Part shown: one piece after another, positions 55,408-64,000 of the stretch
Layout of the letters: the number at the start of each line of letters is the position of its first letter
Numbering within the stretch: the stretch's first letter is position 1
Assembly (NCBI RefSeq): GCF_025263565.1
Contig: NZ_CP079865.1
Location: forward strand, 4,898,001-4,962,000
Direction of reading: 5' to 3'
Length of the DNA stretch: 64,000 bases
DNA from: Mycobacterium sp. SMC-8
GTDB lineage: Bacteria > Actinomycetota > Actinomycetes > Mycobacteriales > Mycobacteriaceae
The notes under the pieces: generated by a model
The model's database searches: none
The model's input: the letters and a program-made list of their open reading frames with translations, nothing else
Told to the model about the DNA's origin: nothing
Translations under genes and position numbers: made by a program

Positions 55408-57064
55408 CCTCGACCCACCGATGAATCGCCTGTTCGGAGGGTGTTGATGTAAGGAAAGTGCCCTTTGAGCTGGGATGATTGGAGTTACCACACTTCGATC
55501 AGCCCACGTTCAGAAAGGCACTTCCGGTGCAAGTGTCCCATAGGTTCGCCGTGTCGTCGGCGGTCTTCGATGATGCACATCTCGTGTCGTGCGCCGGGCT
55601 GGTGCCGGTGATGACCCTGGCCGGCCAGACCGGTCTGTCGCAGCTATTGGCCGACAAGATCCGGTTCACCTGTGAGCGGATCCGTTCGGGTGCGGCCCAT
55701 CCGTCACCGAAGCTGACCACGCTGATCGCCGGGATGTGCGCCGGCGCGGACAGCATTGATGACCTAGACGTTGTGCGCTCGGGTGGGATGAAGACCCTCT
55801 TCGGTGGTGTGTACGCCCCGTCGACGATCGGAACCTTATTGCGGGAGTTCACCTTCGGGCATGCCCGCCAGCTCGAATCTGTCCTGCGCGAACACCTGGC
55901 CGCGCTGTGCGGGCGTGTCGATCTGTTGCCCGGCGCCGACGGACGGGCGTTCATCGACATCGACTCACTACTACGCCCGGTCTACGGGCACGCCAAGCAG
56001 GGCGCCAGCTACGGACACACCAAGATCGCCGGCAGGCAGATCCTGCGCAAAGGCCTCTCACCGTTGATCACCACGATCAGCACCGACCACGGTGCGCCGG
56101 TGATCGCCGGGGCGAGGTTGCGGGCGGGCAAGGCCAACTCCGGCAAGGGCGCAGCCCGCATGATCGCTCAAGCGGCCGCTACCGCCCGTGCTGCCGGGGT
56201 CACCGGGCAGATCCTGGTGCGTGGCGATTCGGCCTACGGCAATAGCACCGTGGTCACCGCCTGCCACCGAGCAGGTGTCCGGTTCTCGCTGGTGCTGACC
56301 AAGACCGCCGCAGTTGCCGCCGCCATTGACGCAATTCCCGAGACCGCGTGGACCCCGGTGAACTATCCCGGTGCTGTGCGTGACCCCGACACCGGCGCCT
56401 GGATCTCCGATGCCGAAGTCGCCGAAACCACCTACACAGCCTTCGGTTCCACCAAGACTCCGGTGACCGCCCGGTTGGTCGTGCGCCGGGTCAAAGACGC
56501 GCGGTTCCTCGATGCGCTGTTTCCGGTGTGGCGGTACCACCCGTTCTTCACCAATTCCGACGAACCCGTCGACGCCGCTGACATCACTCATCGCCGCCAC
56601 GCCATCATCGAAACCGTGTTCGCCGACCTCATCGACGGACCTTTGGCGCACATGCCCTCGGGGCGGTTCGGCGCGAACTCGGCCTGGATCCTGTGCGCCG
56701 CGATCGCCCACAACCTGCTGCGCGCCGTCGGCGTCCTGGCCGGAGGTGCCCACGCGGTCGCCCGCGGGGCGACACTGCGCCGCAAGATAATCACTATCCC
56801 GGCCCGCCTGGCCCGTCCGCAACGCCAACCTATCCTGCACCTACCAGCGCACTGGCCCTGGACAGAGCACTGGCTCACGTTGTGGCGCAACACCATCGGC
56901 TACAGCCCACCAGAAATCGCCACCACCTGACCATATGCCGAAAGGCCCGACCGGAGCGCACAGGAACAGCTGGACAGACCAGCAGATACCCCCTGCCCGC
57001 GACCAGGACCAGCCCTCAACAGCCCAGCGAGGCACACCTACCCCAATTCATCAGTGGATCGAGG
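55408..57064 (+). mobile_element. IS1380-family insertion sequence, copy 2 (1,657 bp)
   Basis: Terminal inverted repeats: left CCTCGACCCACCGATGAAT (from 55408) and right, complement, CCTCGATCCACTGATGAAT (ending 57064), 17 of 19 matching. The 5 bp sequence CTTAG is repeated on both sides (55403-55407 and 57065-57069). It carries one plus-strand transposase. It inserted between the ADH gene and an ABM-family gene. Confidence 0.9.
55527..56930 (+). CDS. IS1380-family transposase (copy 2)
   Basis: 467 residues from GTG 55527; a TTG at 55479 would extend it, but family members begin near VQVSHRFAVSSAVFDD and AAAGG precedes the GTG. Catalytic acidic residues lie in RAFIDIDSLLR, ILVRGDSAYGNSTV and the C-terminal HAIIETVFADLIDG. 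The frame is complete and the ends intact, so it may be mobile. Confidence 0.93.
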   Translation: MQVSHRFAVSSAVFDDAHLVSCAGLVPVMTLAGQTGLSQLLADKIRFTCERIRSGAAHPSPKLTTLIAGMCAGADSIDDLDVVRSGGMKTLFGGVYAPSTIGTLLREFTFGHARQLESVLREHLAALCGRVDLLPGADGRAFIDIDSLLRPVYGHAKQGASYGHTKIAGRQILRKGLSPLITTISTDHGAPVIAGARLRAGKANSGKGAARMIAQAAATARAAGVTGQILVRGDSAYGNSTVVTACHRAGVRFSLVLTKTAAVAAAIDAIPETAWTPVNYPGAVRDPDTGAWISDAEVAETTYTAFGSTKTPVTARLVVRRVKDARFLDALFPVWRYHPFFTNSDEPVDAADITHRRHAIIETVFADLIDGPLAHMPSGRFGANSAWILCAAIAHNLLRAVGVLAGGAHAVARGATLRRKIITIPARLARPQRQPILHLPAHWPWTEHWLTLWRNTIGYSPPEIATT

Positions 57065-59172: not shown

Positions 59173-59676
59173 ATGGCACATGCGACAGTCAGCAGATCAG
59201 CGGTACGTCCCAATCAGCCCGCCCGCCAGGTTATCGCCACCTTCGACAACTACGCAGACGCCGAGCGCGCCGTCGACTATCTCTCCGATCAGCAGTTTCC
59301 GGTCAACCGGGTCGCCATCGTGGGCCGCGATCTGGAATATGTCGAACAAGTTCTCGGCCGGCTCAATTACGGAGGGGCCGCGTTACGGGGTGCGGCGTCC
59401 GGTGCCCTGGTCGGGGCACTCATCGGCTGGGTGTTCGGAATCTTCAGCTGGATCGACCCACTGACCACCGCCCTGTTACTGGCCCTCTATGGCGTGATCT
59501 TCGGAGCGGTCGTCGGCGCTTTGATGGGGCTGCTCGTGCACGCCCTCCAACGCGGTCGGCGCGACTTTCAATCCGTTTCCCGCCTGGTCCCCAAGTCCTA
59601 CGACCTCGTCGCCGATGTCGAAGTGGCCGACCAAGCACTGCGGCTGCTCTCCACGGCTGACAACCATAAGGAGTGA
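59173..59676 (+). CDS. General stress protein 17M-like membrane protein
   Basis: 167 residues from ATG 59173. VIATFDNYADAERAVDYLSDQQFPVNRVAIVGRDLEYVEQVLGR is the 17M-type domain, followed by two glycine-rich hydrophobic segments (AASGALVGALIGWVFGIF and LALYGVIFGAVVGALMGLL) and a C-terminal soluble part. Family members are induced by general stress; mechanism unknown. Operonic with hsp20. Confidence 0.85.
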   Translation: MAHATVSRSAVRPNQPARQVIATFDNYADAERAVDYLSDQQFPVNRVAIVGRDLEYVEQVLGRLNYGGAALRGAASGALVGALIGWVFGIFSWIDPLTTALLLALYGVIFGAVVGALMGLLVHALQRGRRDFQSVSRLVPKSYDLVADVEVADQALRLLSTADNHKE

Positions 59677-59824
59677 AGCATGGCACCAGCTGTGAGTTAG
59701 ACGATAGGTTGTTCGTCGTCGCCGGCATGCATGACGATGCCGATCGCCAGCCTTCCCTGATCTCAGCGGCGAACGTGGGATCTGTGATGCCGACGTCCTC
59801 GCCCAAGGTGATGAGCTGGTCATC

Positions 59825-60904
59825 TCCGCCCAACGCCAGCTTCGCTTCTCGGCCCAGCCGGACCTCGTGCAGGATCCGCCCGGGTTGTTCTTCGGTGAGG
59901 GGATCGACGCGCCTGCCTTGCATGCGGGCCAATGTGCGCAGCGTGCACAACGCCAGGCGGGCGTCGATCCCGAGCGCCATCCACCCCGTGAGTAGCGAGT
60001 CACGTCCGAACAGCGTCATGAACCATGGGGCGCCGGCGGCAAGGATGGGACAATCCGGTTGCTCGGGATCTTCGATCTGCAGCGAACCCAGGTCGCTGGC
60101 TCCCGATTCAAGTGCTGCTTTGAAGGCCCCGTCGGGCGTCGACACCGTCGGGCTGGACAACCGCCAGGCCCGCAGCCTGTGTGCGGGCGTGCCCACATCG
60201 CCGGGTTCACGGGACTGGAAGGAAGCGCCGACCTGACCGCCCGGCGATGCGGTGGCCACGCCGAACGATGTCGACCACTCCGCTCGTCCCCCCACCAGAA
60301 CCTTGAAGGTGAATCTTCCCGGTGTGACGGACGGCTCGCCGGTGGCGGCGATTCGCGCCACGTGGGTGCCGCCCGGCGCGGCCATGGTGTAGGTCATGGC
60401 GTCGGCGGCGAGATCAACGGAGATCCCGTGGGGTGCGGTGACGCGTCCCTCCTTCACCGCGAACAAGTCGGCGAAGTCGACGTCGACAGCCATCGTCAGC
60501 GTGACACTCACCGGTTCGTGCCCGAAGTTGCGTAGCACAACGTCCTCCCGCATACCGTCACCGATATAGCGGGTGCGCAGCACGAGCATGGTGCTGTCGG
60601 CAGCCCATGGCCGGGGCGGTGTGCGTCCGATGAACATCGCCCGCTAGGGCTCGGTGGATTCCTGGACGGTTGACAGGTTCTCAACAGGCTGGCCGTCGAT
60701 GGCCAACCGCCAACACGACAGGACACGGGTGTCTGCGATGAACAGACCGTGTGGTCGGTCCCGCTGAACATCCCCCGCGTGCGAAGAGATGCAGAACGTA
60801 CTCCCTTCCAGTAGGGTCACCGCGCCGGTGTCGCCGGTCACCGGCGGACCGGTTCCCGACGCCCAGGCGCCGGACGCACAGTCTTCGCCGTCGACGAACG
60901 TCAC
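59825..60904 (-). pseudogene. Glycogen debranching / amylo-alpha-1,6-glucosidase-like pseudogene
   Basis: The gene starts at GTG 60904, which overlaps the TGA of the glycosyltransferase gene (GTGA). The N-terminal trehalase-like debranching domain reads GAVTLLEGSTFCISSHAGD and GLFIADTRVLSCWRLAIDG, then meets an in-frame amber codon at 60644-60646 where STEPYR-like sequence is expected. In the same frame it resumes with FIGRTPPRPWAADSTMLVL and continues to PWFMTLFGRDSLLTGWMAL and GRILHEVRLGREAKLALGG. Homology ends at ~59825; the C-terminal half of the (~700 residue) enzyme is missing. Two lesions indicate a dead gene. Confidence 0.8.
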
Positions 60905-61968
60905 CGCGTCACCAACTCGTGATAGAGCGCGAGGTGATCGCTGACCATGCGAGCGGTTGAGAACCGCTCGATCACCGCCTCGCGGCAGGCCCGTCGGCTG
61001 AGGTGATCGACGTTGCAGATAGCGCGGACGAGAGCGTCTTTCCCGCTGCACAGGTAGCCGGTGACTCCGTCATCGACGATTTCGGGCGCCGCACCGTTCG
61101 GACAGGCGATGACCGGCGTACCGCAGGCCAGTGCCTCGATCATCACCAACCCGAAGGGTTCTGGCCATTGGATGGGATTGAGAAGCGCAGACGCCTCACC
61201 GAGAAGGGCCAGCTTGTCCTGCCCGCCGACTTCACCGATGAACTCGACGTTGTCGTCGAGCAACGGCTCTATCTGGTCGTGGTAGTACGCCTGCTCCGAT
61301 TTCTCGCGAGCCTTGGCGGCCACAATGAGACGCCGGCCCGCTGCGCGTGCGGCCAGCACCGCCTGCCGAACTCCCTTATCGGCTGTCATTCTTCCGAGGA
61401 ACAGAAGAAAACCGCCGTCGCCGTCGCCGTCGGGGTAGGCCGTTGGATCGAGGCCGTGGTGGATCACCCGGTCGATCATCACCTCCGGCGCTCGTCGGGC
61501 CTGGTTGTGCGAGACGGCGACGACCGGTATCCGCTTGGCGTAGCGGCGGTATATCGCGCTGAGCTCGCCGCCGAAAGGGCCGTGACAGGTGGTGACAACA
61601 CGATCGCAACCATTGGCAAGGGCCCAAGCCGGTCCGAGAAGGGTGTGATCGTGGATGATGTCGCACCCGGTGAGTGCTTCGTAACCGCCCATCACGTGTG
61701 GCAGCTCGACTTCGCCGTGGCCTATTCGGTCCCAGGTCGCACTGGCCGTGGCGCGCACGAGGGGCACGGGAGCCGTGCTGTCGCCGGTAGCGTAGAGCAT
61801 CACCTCGTGGCCGGCCGCAATCAGCCCGACCGCCAGCTCCGAGACGACCGCTTCGGTGCCGCCATACGACGATGGCGGCACCGCGGCCCACGGAGGTGCC
61901 AGCAGGCCGATCTTCAGAGAACCGATTCCTATGGCGCCATGGTGGATTTCGCTTACCTGCCAAGACAC
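60901..61968 (-). CDS. Glycosyltransferase family 4 (GT-B)
   Basis: 355 residues from GTG 61968. KIGLLAPPWAAVPPSSYGGTEAVV is the N-terminal glycine loop; GRMTADKGVRQAVLAA and EPFGLVMIEALACGTPVIA (EX7E motif) are typical GT4. The enzyme transfers a sugar from a nucleotide donor; substrate unknown. It was translationally coupled to the debranching gene, and similar pairs are found in actinobacterial stress or dormancy clusters. Confidence 0.88.
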   Translation of the reverse strand: MSWQVSEIHHGAIGIGSLKIGLLAPPWAAVPPSSYGGTEAVVSELAVGLIAAGHEVMLYATGDSTAPVPLVRATASATWDRIGHGEVELPHVMGGYEALTGCDIIHDHTLLGPAWALANGCDRVVTTCHGPFGGELSAIYRRYAKRIPVVAVSHNQARRAPEVMIDRVIHHGLDPTAYPDGDGDGGFLLFLGRMTADKGVRQAVLAARAAGRRLIVAAKAREKSEQAYYHDQIEPLLDDNVEFIGEVGGQDKLALLGEASALLNPIQWPEPFGLVMIEALACGTPVIACPNGAAPEIVDDGVTGYLCSGKDALVRAICNVDHLSRRACREAVIERFSTARMVSDHLALYHELVTR

Positions 61969-62250
61969 CAGCCCGTCGGAGCAGAAAACACAGGAGAGCG
62001 TAGTACCGCCGGATCAATGCTCCTTACCCTGTGCGCCTTGGCGTTACGACAGGCGCCACACTGTCGGCCTGCGAGCGTAAAGCACGAGCGATGGCCTGAC
62101 CCCGCAGACCGGTGCCGCGACTAGCGCGTGCGCTGGGGGTAGAGGAAACGCCAGGACCGGGTCGCGGCGTGAAGATTGAAGCGGGTGTTGGCATCGCGCA
62201 GGTCGCAACCGGTCAGTTCACTGATGCGCGCCAGCCGGTAGCGTAGCGTG

Positions 62251-62265
62251 TGTTGGCCGTCGCTC
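62251..62265 (+). repeat. Left terminal inverted repeat of the 1.04 kb element
   Basis: TGTTGGCCGTCGCTC; pairs with 63279-63293 (13/15). Preceded by the duplicated target AGCGTG. Confidence 0.85.
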
Positions 62266-62268
62266 AGG

Positions 62269-62324
62269 ATGCAGACGATGGCGTCACTGTGGATGCAGAC
62301 GTGATTTCGGGGGTCGGTCTGCAT
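62269..62324. repeat. Subterminal repeated motif cluster of the element
   Basis: ATGCAGAC at 62269-62276 and 62293-62300 (direct, 24 bases apart) and GTCTGCAT at 62317-62324 (inverted, also 24 bases further). One more ATGCAGAC is at 63203-63210 near the other end. The regular 24-base spacing suggests protein-binding sites. Confidence 0.65.
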
Positions 62325-62427
62325 TGTGACGGGGTAATCGTCGCGGCGACGCGGTGGTCGTCATGGTGACGACTGTCGGCAGGCATGGTGATGACGCCCC
62401 CGGCGGCAGCGCGGGGACGTCGGAGGG

Positions 62428-63003
62428 TCAGCCGGGTGGCGCCAGAAGGCGGCCGCGGGTGTACATCCCGATCAGGGTCCACGGCGGCTCACCGAGGGCG
62501 TAGCGGCGGCGGTCCCAGTAGGCCGCTGCCGACAACAGCGACAGCGCGTGGTGCAACATGTTCCCTCGGTAGCGCAGCGCGGTGAACGTGTCGGGGTCCA
62601 GGGCGAGCAGCTGCTCGGTCCCGTCGCGTGCGAGACGGTCCAGGTGCTCTGGCGGTAGTCGGCGAAGCCAGCGGCGCACGGTGGACACCGGCCGCCCCAT
62701 GGTCGCCGCGATACGCCGGTGTCCGAGTCCATTTGCTTTGTGCAGCAATGCTGTTCCAATCACTGCGGTGGTGTCGGCATGGCGTGGCTGCAGAGCGGCG
62801 GGCATCACGATATGCGTTGACGAGCAGGACCGGCATCGCGTGCGGCGGGGGCGCACCGTGATCGTGGTCCCGTCGTGATCGCGCACGGAGCGCCGCCTGC
62901 CGTAGCCCCAAGAAGTCAGCTGGCCGTCGCGGCACCGCGGGCAGCGGAGTTCGCCGGCGGCGAGCAGTTTCTCGGCCAGTTCGCCGGTGCGCGCGACGAT
63001 CAC
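62428..63003 (-). CDS. DUF6431-like zinc-ribbon plus helix-turn-helix protein of the element
   Basis: 191 residues from GTG 63003 (family-like start VIVARTGELAEKLLAAGELRC; a GTG at 63042 would add 13). A zinc ribbon has two Cys pairs: CPRC near residue 20 and CRSC near residue 59, flanking WGYGRRRSVRDHDG. Then an HTH of resolvase/ISL3-like type, GLGHRRIAATMGRPVSTVRRWLRRL. The C-terminal ~70 residues are helical and end MYTRGRLLAPPG. It resembles N-terminal DNA-binding parts of transposases but lacks a catalytic domain. I infer end-binding or regulation of transposition. Confidence 0.75.
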   Translation of the reverse strand: MIVARTGELAEKLLAAGELRCPRCRDGQLTSWGYGRRRSVRDHDGTTITVRPRRTRCRSCSSTHIVMPAALQPRHADTTAVIGTALLHKANGLGHRRIAATMGRPVSTVRRWLRRLPPEHLDRLARDGTEQLLALDPDTFTALRYRGNMLHHALSLLSAAAYWDRRRYALGEPPWTLIGMYTRGRLLAPPG

Positions 63004-63035
63004 CGCAGAGCCAGTCCATGATCCACCAGCCTTAC

Positions 63036-63058
63036 CTATCACCCGGGAACCGGGATAG
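63036..63058. promoter_or_regulatory. Hairpin upstream of the element gene
   Basis: CTATC and CCGG then GAA then CCGGGATAG form a stem with a small bulge just upstream of the DUF6431-like gene. It may block read-through from the host gene or bind the protein. Confidence 0.35.
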
Positions 63059-63278
63059 GGGTCAGTTCGTGTTGGGCGACCGCAGAATCGACGCGTCCGC
63101 CGTCACCGATTGTGACGATCTCGGGATTCGGCATCGCGCCGGAGCCGAAATGGACTCTGCGCGAGCAGACCAGCGCGGGGTCCGTTCGTGGGCACGCTGA
63201 TGATGCAGACGACCGCCGTCCCCGACCCGGGATTTCGACAACTTCAATGACGATCACCCCCGCCGTGGTCGTCACACA

Positions 63279-63293
63279 GAGGGACGGTCAACA
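63279..63293 (-). repeat. Right terminal inverted repeat of the 1.04 kb element
   Basis: On the minus strand TGTTGACCGTCCCTC; followed on the plus strand by the second target copy AGCGTG at 63294-63299. Confidence 0.85.
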
Positions 63294-64000
63294 AGCGTGC
63301 TGCGGTGGATGTGCAGGGCCTCGGCGGTATCGTCGTAATTGCCACCGCTTTCCAGGTGTTCACTCAGCGTGAGAACGAGCTCCGACTTTTTGGTCGAGTC
63401 GTATTCCAGCAGGGCGCCGATCCATTCTCGGACGAAATCCTCGACGGCTCCGCCCGCATGGGCTACGTCGATGAGACGGTAGAAGCCAAGTTCGTCGTAG
63501 GCCGATGCACCGGCGGATACCGCGGAATGCAGTCGCACATTCAGCCCCCGTTTCGCCGCAGCGAACGACATCGGAAAATCCGACGGCGCTTCGCACCGCG
63601 AGCCGATGCCGATGGCGCATGTATGCCGCCCCAGCAACTCGCTGAGCGCGCGGTAAAACTCTTGCGGGTCTGGTCGGCCTTCGGTCAGAAGCACCACCAG
63701 CTTGCCGCTACGCCCCTGCAGCCTGTTCAGGTGCAACGCCGCGGCAGCGCGGCCGGCGCCGGTGGCCACGGAATCAGATGCGGCCGAGCTGTGCACGACG
63801 ACCACATAATGCGGAGGGCGGAGGTCGTGCCCCAATGCCTCCGACCTGGCGAAAGCCCCGTCGTCGTCGGTGCCGGCGAGCAGGTCCTCAACGAATTCGC
63901 GGCGGACGGAGAGCTCCCTGTCCACCAAGCTCCGCTGGTGCGACAACTCGTAGCCCAACAGCGTGCACGCGAACTGCAGGGCGACCAGGTGGTCCTGGGC

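What the first reader, a model, noticed from the sequence alone, without database searches (positions are those of the whole stretch)
62245..63299. Compact 1.04 kb mobile element carrying only a zinc-ribbon/HTH protein, with exact ends and a 6 bp target duplication
The sequence shows 15 bp inverted repeats (13/15) with TG...CA ends, an exact AGCGTG duplication, regularly spaced subterminal ATGCAGAC sites (24-base period on the left), and one gene with CxxC...CxxC plus HTH but no catalytic transposase domain. Multiple subterminal binding sites recall Mu/Tn7/Tn5053-type ends. Either the small protein is an unrecognised transposase, or the element is mobilised in trans and the protein is an accessory DNA-binding factor. 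I know of no described IS family with this composition, but could not search.
Basis: partly seen in the sequence, partly recalled or inferred. Interest (0 to 1): 0.88.

Follow-up and report, generated by a model that had tools for sequence, protein, structure and literature searches.

The report
Single-gene satellite of actinobacterial transposons
A 1 kb jumping piece of bacterial DNA keeps just one gene, related to the DNA-binding protein of a larger three-gene transposon with related ends, and very likely moves by borrowing that transposon's cutting and ATP-using proteins, which would make it a long-lived parasite of a transposon.

Summary
Window 62251-63293 is a 1043-bp insertion with 13/15 inverted ends and a 6-bp AGCGTG duplication inside a PucR-type gene; six of six aligned relatives have the uninterrupted site. 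Its only conserved gene encodes a DUF6431 protein (zinc ribbon, HTH, helical tail) with no recognisable catalytic domain. It belongs to a family of 1.02-1.11 kb single-gene elements in Actinomycetes; one Mycobacterium strain has six near-identical copies, each with its own duplication. Nine of 21 loci examined gave larger elements with related ends and 5-6 bp duplications, whose genes are orfA (DUF6431-like), a DD35E integrase and an AAA ATPase. Single-gene proteins are compatible with one clade, and close pairs show purifying selection. Carriers are enriched for the integrase. Shown: anatomy, related ends, recent movement of a relative. Inferred: trans-mobilisation and the protein's role. The window's genome is not held, so no helper was seen there.

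The parts
62245..62250 (.). target-site duplication AGCGTG, left copy
   Evidence: in four of six relatives the flank alignments overlap by exactly these 6 bases
62251..62265 (+). left terminal inverted repeat TGTTGGCCGTCGCTC (gene-downstream end)
   Evidence: related ends in single-gene and three-gene elements
62269..62276 (+). subterminal repeat ATGCAGAC, copy 1
   Evidence: D1
62293..62300 (+). subterminal repeat ATGCAGAC, copy 2, 24 bases on; falls in the gap-free 55-column end alignment
62317..62324 (-). subterminal repeat, inverted copy
   Evidence: I23
62428..63042 (-). DUF6431 (PF20020) gene, 204 aa from GTG (191 aa from an inner start near 63003): zinc ribbon (C34, C37, C70, C73), HTH about residues 92-128, helical C-terminus ending GRLLAPPG
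63203..63210 (+). subterminal repeat ATGCAGAC on the gene-upstream side
   Evidence: D1
63279..63293 (-). right terminal inverted repeat TGTTGACCGTCCCTC (gene-upstream end)
63294..63299 (.). target-site duplication AGCGTG, right copy
63294..64000 (-). interrupted PucR-type regulator gene, upstream part (GGDEF_2 and first half of the HTH_30 domain; runs off the window)
62121..62250 (-). interrupted PucR-type regulator gene, downstream part (second half of HTH_30)

Best explanation
The segment is a non-autonomous single-gene 'satellite' transposon. Its ends are related to those of a family of three-gene transposons (orfA = DUF6431-like DNA-binding protein, orfB = DD35E integrase with a Mu-type C-terminal domain, orfC = AAA ATPase), and it keeps only its own diverged orfA. 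Most likely the integrase and ATPase of a resident three-gene element act in trans on the TGTTG ends, join them to a new site and leave a 5-9 bp duplication. The satellite's DUF6431 protein most likely binds subterminal or terminal repeats, or bridges the ends to the borrowed machinery, which would explain why it stays under selection. Shown: insertion anatomy, empty site, related ends, recent movement of a relative, homology of the DUF6431 proteins. Inferred: trans-mobilisation and the protein's exact task.
For: Related ends: nine three-gene elements with TGTT ends (9-13 of 15 matching) and 5-6 bp duplications among 21 loci examined; the 3' terminal 55 bp of 23 of the 34 delimited elements (16 single-gene, 7 three-gene) align without gaps, 78% mean column identity; window against the Gordonia three-gene element scores 36.5 and 34.5 of 50, interior controls mean 10.9, maximum 21.5 of 2000. 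orfA and the small protein are homologous. Recent movement: six copies, 1044-1045 of 1045 identical, six sites with 6-9 bp identical flanks, in M. intracellulare AH16, whose 437-kb plasmid also holds two three-gene elements. The small element's unusual 3' end is nearest to L129 in that plasmid (39.5, next 30.5). In 401 genomes, integrase in 4 of 9 with the small element against 6 of 392 without (p 2.3e-5; 3 of 7 without two pre-chosen genomes, p 2.7e-4); Tn3 control 3 of 9 against 59 of 392 (p 0.15). dN/dS 0.20-0.53 in the 21 closest pairs with a defined ratio. One clade not rejected, p-AU 0.48.
Against: Five of nine small-element genomes in the family sample, and 6 of 17 in the first set, show no related integrase (a further one of the 17, G013, has only a 34%-identity match). 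The window's own genome is not held. End matching is not specific to the own genome: of six small elements whose genome also gave a delimited three-gene element, the own one scores best on both ends summed in two (L007, L009), and on the 3' end alone in one (L003). Some end pairs score no better than the controls, above all the 5' ends of L129, L074 and L073 (down to 8.0). Eight of 25 small elements have no 5-bp duplication. No transposition experiment.
Confidence: 0.82

Rival explanations
1. The DUF6431 protein is itself a complete, unrecognised transposase and the element is autonomous.
For: Long-lived single-gene lineage with intact gene, and copies in genomes with no detected integrase of the family (5 of 9); G289 has two copies with 6-bp duplications.
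Against: No catalytic domain above cut-off; the model (mean pLDDT 89.7) gives HTH rows and low-scoring others only; related ends and a homologous protein in elements that have a DD35E integrase; the two G289 copies are only 68% identical, so they are not recent duplicates.
Confidence: 0.05
2. Passive remnant: recent internal deletions of three-gene elements left orfA by accident, with no function for the protein.
For: Internal deletion does occur: in G002 (locus L172) a truncated orfA lies next to orfC with orfB missing. Two of 25 small elements have no intact frame.
Against: Small-element proteins do not scatter among three-gene proteins on the tree (2 label changes, shuffles 16.5), sizes are held to 1022-1112 bp, and dN/dS is 0.20-0.53 in close pairs.
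Confidence: 0.06
3. A variant of the best explanation: the element moves in trans, but its DUF6431 protein is a repressor, rival or copy-number regulator of the three-gene element and is not needed for the satellite's own movement. (Overlaps the best explanation; its odds are not to be added to it.)
For: Zn/HTH DNA-binding architecture. In AH16 the three-gene copy L129 has its orfA split over two reading frames while orfB and orfC are open, and the small element is multi-copy there.
Against: A small gene is annotated just upstream of the integrase in 8 of 10 annotated regions (139-218 aa; none annotated in L103 and L111), which fits a positive role as well; no regulatory data.
Confidence: 0.22

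Closest known systems
Mobile insertion cassettes (MIC231 type)
   Same: Transposon ends and usually target duplications, no transposase gene; MIC231A1 is described as mobilised in trans by the IS231A transposase (passages of PMC3913671 read)
   Different: MIC231A1 carries a passenger gene (adp); here the only gene is a homologue of the proposed helper's own first gene
TnpB-only elements (IS1341 type) and HAL1 elements derived from LINE-1
   Same: Keep one gene of a larger element; both are discussed as possibly non-autonomous in PMC3627910 (passages read)
   Different: Different chemistry; TnpB-only elements lack inverted repeats and duplications (same passages); here inverted ends, duplications and a DNA-binding protein
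Tn7/Tn5053/Mu-type transposons (TniA, TniB, TniQ; features recalled)
   Same: The proposed helper has a DDE integrase with a Mu C-terminal domain plus an AAA ATPase and a Zn/HTH protein; TGT...ACA ends with subterminal repeats
   Different: No TniQ match in Pfam for the small protein; orfC matches AAA_22 and has no solved relative by sequence
IS481 and IS21 families
   Same: orfB matches the IS481 model below its cut-off (164 of 224 bits) and IS21 weakly (41.7 of 160)
   Different: Three-gene operon with orfA; the one-gene IS481 and two-gene IS21 organisation are recalled
DUF6431 (PF20020)
   Same: The window protein is above the curated cut-off (36.8 against 26.6 bits)
   Different: The family is named as of unknown function; its role as a transposon gene is proposed here. 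Three-gene orfA proteins fall just below the cut-off (23.8 and 20.2 bits)

Membership tests
DUF6431-DDE-AAA transposon family (named here) | TGTT... ends with subterminal repeats and a 5-9 bp duplication | tested here: met
DUF6431-DDE-AAA transposon family (named here) | DUF6431-like orfA | tested here: met
DUF6431-DDE-AAA transposon family (named here) | DDE integrase and AAA ATPase in the element | tested here: not met
   no match anywhere in the window, best E 0.66 and 0.84; so a related non-autonomous element, not a full member
Mobile insertion cassette | transposon ends, duplication, no transposase | tested here: met
Mobile insertion cassette | carries a passenger gene foreign to the helper (recalled as typical) | tested here: not met
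   the gene is homologous to orfA of the proposed helper
Mobile insertion cassette | mobilised in trans | not testable with these tools
   needs an experiment
MITE | short, no coding capacity (recalled) | tested here: not met
   intact 191-204 aa gene, dN/dS 0.20-0.53 in close pairs
TniQ-type protein | TniQ Pfam domain or fold | tested here: inconclusive
   no TniQ match in Pfam; the structural second look does not exclude it
IS21 / ISL3 transposases | curated family model above cut-off in the element's own protein | tested here: not met
   ISL3 22 of 180 bits, IS21 14.1 of 160 bits

The most novel reading that the evidence does not exclude
These 1.05-kb elements are an ancient lineage of protein-coding satellite transposons that arose once. 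They encode their own end-recognition or bridging protein (DUF6431), which acts in cis to pull in the integrase and ATPase of an undescribed three-gene transposon family, a bacterial DDE counterpart of the HAL1 half-elements, spread over several orders of Actinomycetes.
Probability: 0.42. Interest if true: 0.8.

Novelty: new variant of a known kind. Interest (0 to 1): 0.62.

Why it matters
It gives a context to DUF6431 and describes a three-gene DDE/AAA transposon family that the plasmid records seen here label only gene by gene. It also makes the evolution of transposon parasites in bacteria testable: why does a non-autonomous element keep one protein for so long, and does that protein act in cis? 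The three-gene set is a small Mu/Tn7-like system (3.2-3.7 kb in seven of the nine delimited copies), useful for asking what the Zn/HTH partner does.

Tried and rejected

Rows dropped or parts given: G052 (E 9e-34, 28% identity) was not counted as an integrase carrier; small-element carriers were counted at 190 bits or more (9 of the 17 genomes with any A1 match). Of 12 PucR loci held, six were aligned. Of the 120 listed homologues, 38 went into A1, 75 into A3 and 21 into the tree; of the 120 listed, eight went into the tree. Of 34 delimited elements, 23 went into the end alignment A4; the Arthrobacter, Specibacter, Cryobacterium and Tessaracoccus ones and four others were left out.

Full report
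What is there. The segment 62251-63293 (1043 bp) is bracketed by AGCGTG, has 13/15 matching TGTTG...CAACA ends, and carries ATGCAGAC-type repeats near both ends, two of them 24 bases apart. Its one conserved gene, 62428-63042 on the minus strand, encodes a DUF6431 protein (PF20020, 36.8 bits against a cut-off of 26.6) with a HTH. The flanks are two parts of one PucR-type gene: HTH_30 profile positions 1-32 lie on one side and 27-58 on the other.

Empty site. A search of 148 genomes of the genus of G003 with the upstream flank found 27 with a match. Six of the 12 loci held were aligned to the window: all six are uninterrupted, and in four (L158, L159, L161, L164) the two flank alignments overlap by exactly 6 bases. 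L157 overlaps by 7 and L156 stops a few bases short. The insertion and its 6-bp duplication are therefore real.

Relatives of the same size. The protein has 339 database relatives at E <= 0.001, the best 120 listed. A genome-contig scan gave 35 loci in Mycobacterium/Mycolicibacterium, Gordonia, Rhodococcus, Pseudonocardia, Arthrobacter, Specibacter, Cryobacterium, Tessaracoccus and others. Of 25 single-gene elements delimited, lengths run from 1022 to 1112 bp and 17 have an identical flank of 5 bases or more. The other eight do not; three of these (L002, L013, L014) look like one shared insertion, with the same neighbouring motifs and nearly identical genes. Some of the 25 were found by requiring a duplication, so 17 of 25 is not an unbiased rate.

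Recent movement. The 1045-bp element of M. intracellulare subsp. chimaera matches six plasmid records. In strain AH16 it occurs four times on the 437-kb plasmid and once on each of two others; the six copies are identical to the query at 1044-1045 of 1045 bases and have identical flanks of 6-9 bases, different at each site. Strain ZUERICH-2 has two copies with 9 and 6 bases; two other plasmids combine the left flank of one with the right flank of the other, as recombination between copies would give.

The larger relatives. In Gordonia rhizosphera, which has two small elements, a 3395-bp element (L076 921-4315, duplication ACTCTT) has the ends TGTTGACCGTCTCTG and TGTTGTCCGTCGCTG and carries a DUF6431-like gene, a DDE integrase (rve, HTH, Mu-transpos_C) and an AAA ATPase whose frame appears broken in its second half. 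With the integrase as query, 70 plasmid records match at E <= 1e-30. Of 21 loci examined for ends, nine gave TGTT ends with 5-6 bp duplications: L076, L073, L074, L102, L104, L105, L106, L114 and L129, 3218 to 5852 bp, with 9 to 13 of 15 end bases matching. A tenth, in Pandoraea, has a 6-bp duplication and 10/15 ends of different sequence. The other loci were broken, at contig ends or not resolved. Of the nine, L102, L104, L105 and L106 have three open genes annotated; in the others at least one gene is split, interrupted or broken. The integrase shows DD35E spacing in L076, L102 and L106 by motif search, and in L129 by counting in the printed sequence. The ATPase has Walker A and B motifs in L102, L106 and L129.

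Related ends. The 3' terminal 55 bases of 23 of the 34 delimited elements (16 single-gene, 7 three-gene) align without a gap, mean column identity 78%. Over all 25 x 9 pairs, 50-bp end scores run from 14.0 to 39.5 at the 3' end and from 8.0 to 39.5 at the 5' end; 2000 interior controls have mean 10.9, SD 2.5, maximum 21.5. So the 3' ends are related nearly throughout, while the 5' ends of L129, L074 and L073 are at control level against many small elements. For each of the 25 small elements the best three-gene element (both ends summed) lies in the same one of two broad groups that I set by hand: Arthrobacter, Specibacter, Cryobacterium and Tessaracoccus against all others (25 of 25). Only two of the nine three-gene elements are in the first group, and common descent alone could give this. 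At the level of the single genome the match is weak: of six small elements with a delimited three-gene element in their own genome, the own one is best in two on both ends summed (L007, L009) and in one on the 3' end alone (L003). In AH16 the unusual 3' end of L003 is closest to L129 in the same plasmid (39.5, next 30.5), but its 5' end is not (9.0), and on both ends summed L106 is best. A sequence model of the 55 bases finds ends of both classes, several at contig ends as collapsed repeats would give, with weak hits only in the carriers G005 and G008 (best 8.8e-5 and 5.2e-4) and in the non-carriers G469 and G501 (best 1.5e-4 and a partial 5.3e-7).

The protein. Three-gene orfA proteins are 29-42% identical to the window protein in a multiple alignment that extends to the shared C-terminal GRLL region in most rows; L108 is truncated. 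Profile matches to orfA often stop after the HTH (about position 118), but some run to 160-189. On a tree of 51 rows the single-gene proteins need two label changes against 16.5 in shuffles, and one clade is not rejected (p-AU 0.48); this does not show one origin, the outgroup branch is very long and support at the base is weak. Among the 21 closest pairs with a defined ratio dN/dS is 0.20-0.53; over all 245 pairs, where synonymous sites saturate, the median pN/pS is 0.65 and the maximum 0.94. Twenty-three of 25 elements gave a usable frame, and the frames include some upstream codons. Between the window and a Gordonia copy (L007), codon positions 1 and 2 are 93-94% identical, position 3 83%, non-coding parts 84-88%. 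The AlphaFold model (mean pLDDT 89.7) has a beta-rich N-terminal domain, a HTH and a helical C-terminus; no convincing catalytic match was found.

Co-occurrence. In 401 genomes of the family of G001, nine have the single-gene type (190 bits or more) and ten the integrase (G052 left out); four have both, p = 2.3e-5. Leaving out G001 and G007, which were in hand because they carry the element, three of seven against six of 392, p = 2.7e-4. Tn3 transposase as a control: three of nine against 59 of 392, p = 0.15. The test does not correct for kinship, and at most eight, three and four candidates per genome were scored in the three searches. Against the reading, five of nine carriers show no integrase, as do six of the first 17 carriers.

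Mechanism. Step 1 (inferred): orfB and orfC from a resident three-gene element are made. Step 2 (inferred): they recognise the TGTTG ends and subterminal repeats, with DUF6431 protein from the satellite, the helper or both. Step 3 (inferred from the 5-9 bp duplications and DD35E): staggered strand transfer into a new site with ATPase help. Step 4 (shown): new copies with fresh duplications, as in AH16 and in the window. The lasting intact gene is best explained if the protein helps its own element; a repressor role is the main alternative.

Novelty. I found no held paper on DUF6431 as a transposon protein, in the searches. Non-autonomous elements with one gene of a larger element are known in other chemistries: TnpB-only elements and HAL1 (passages of PMC3627910), and cassettes with passenger genes are known as MICs (passages of PMC3913671). 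This is therefore a new variant of a known kind, with an apparently undescribed helper family. ISfinder and most subscription journals could not be searched.

Noticed in passing
window 55479-56930, + strand: A 483-aa open frame that looks like an IS1380-type transposase (name recalled, not searched).
   Followed up: no
window 59444-61051, - strand: What looks like one glycogen-debranching-type gene is split over several overlapping frames (397, 87 and 135 aa), next to an open glycosyltransferase-like gene at 60901-61968; names recalled, possible frameshifts.
   Followed up: no
L129 4087-7304 (M. intracellulare subsp. chimaera AH16 plasmid): A three-gene element whose orfA is split over two frames while integrase and ATPase are open, in the strain with six near-identical satellite copies; might the satellites' DUF6431 substitute for it?
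   Followed up: partly
L172 (G002:C1:861500-866500): A truncated orfA lying next to orfC with the integrase gene missing: an internal deletion of a three-gene element, the kind of event that could found a satellite.
   Followed up: partly
L074 5673-11524 (Arthrobacter silviterrae): The three-gene element is enlarged to 5852 bp by a 592-aa open frame (looks like a group II intron reverse transcriptase, recalled) that lies between two pieces of the integrase gene.
   Followed up: no
L110 3140-6511 (Pandoraea pnomenusa plasmid): A proteobacterial three-gene arrangement (177-aa protein, integrase, ATP-binding protein) with a possible CTAATG duplication; the family may extend beyond Actinomycetes, though the 177-aa protein is very distant.
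   Followed up: partly
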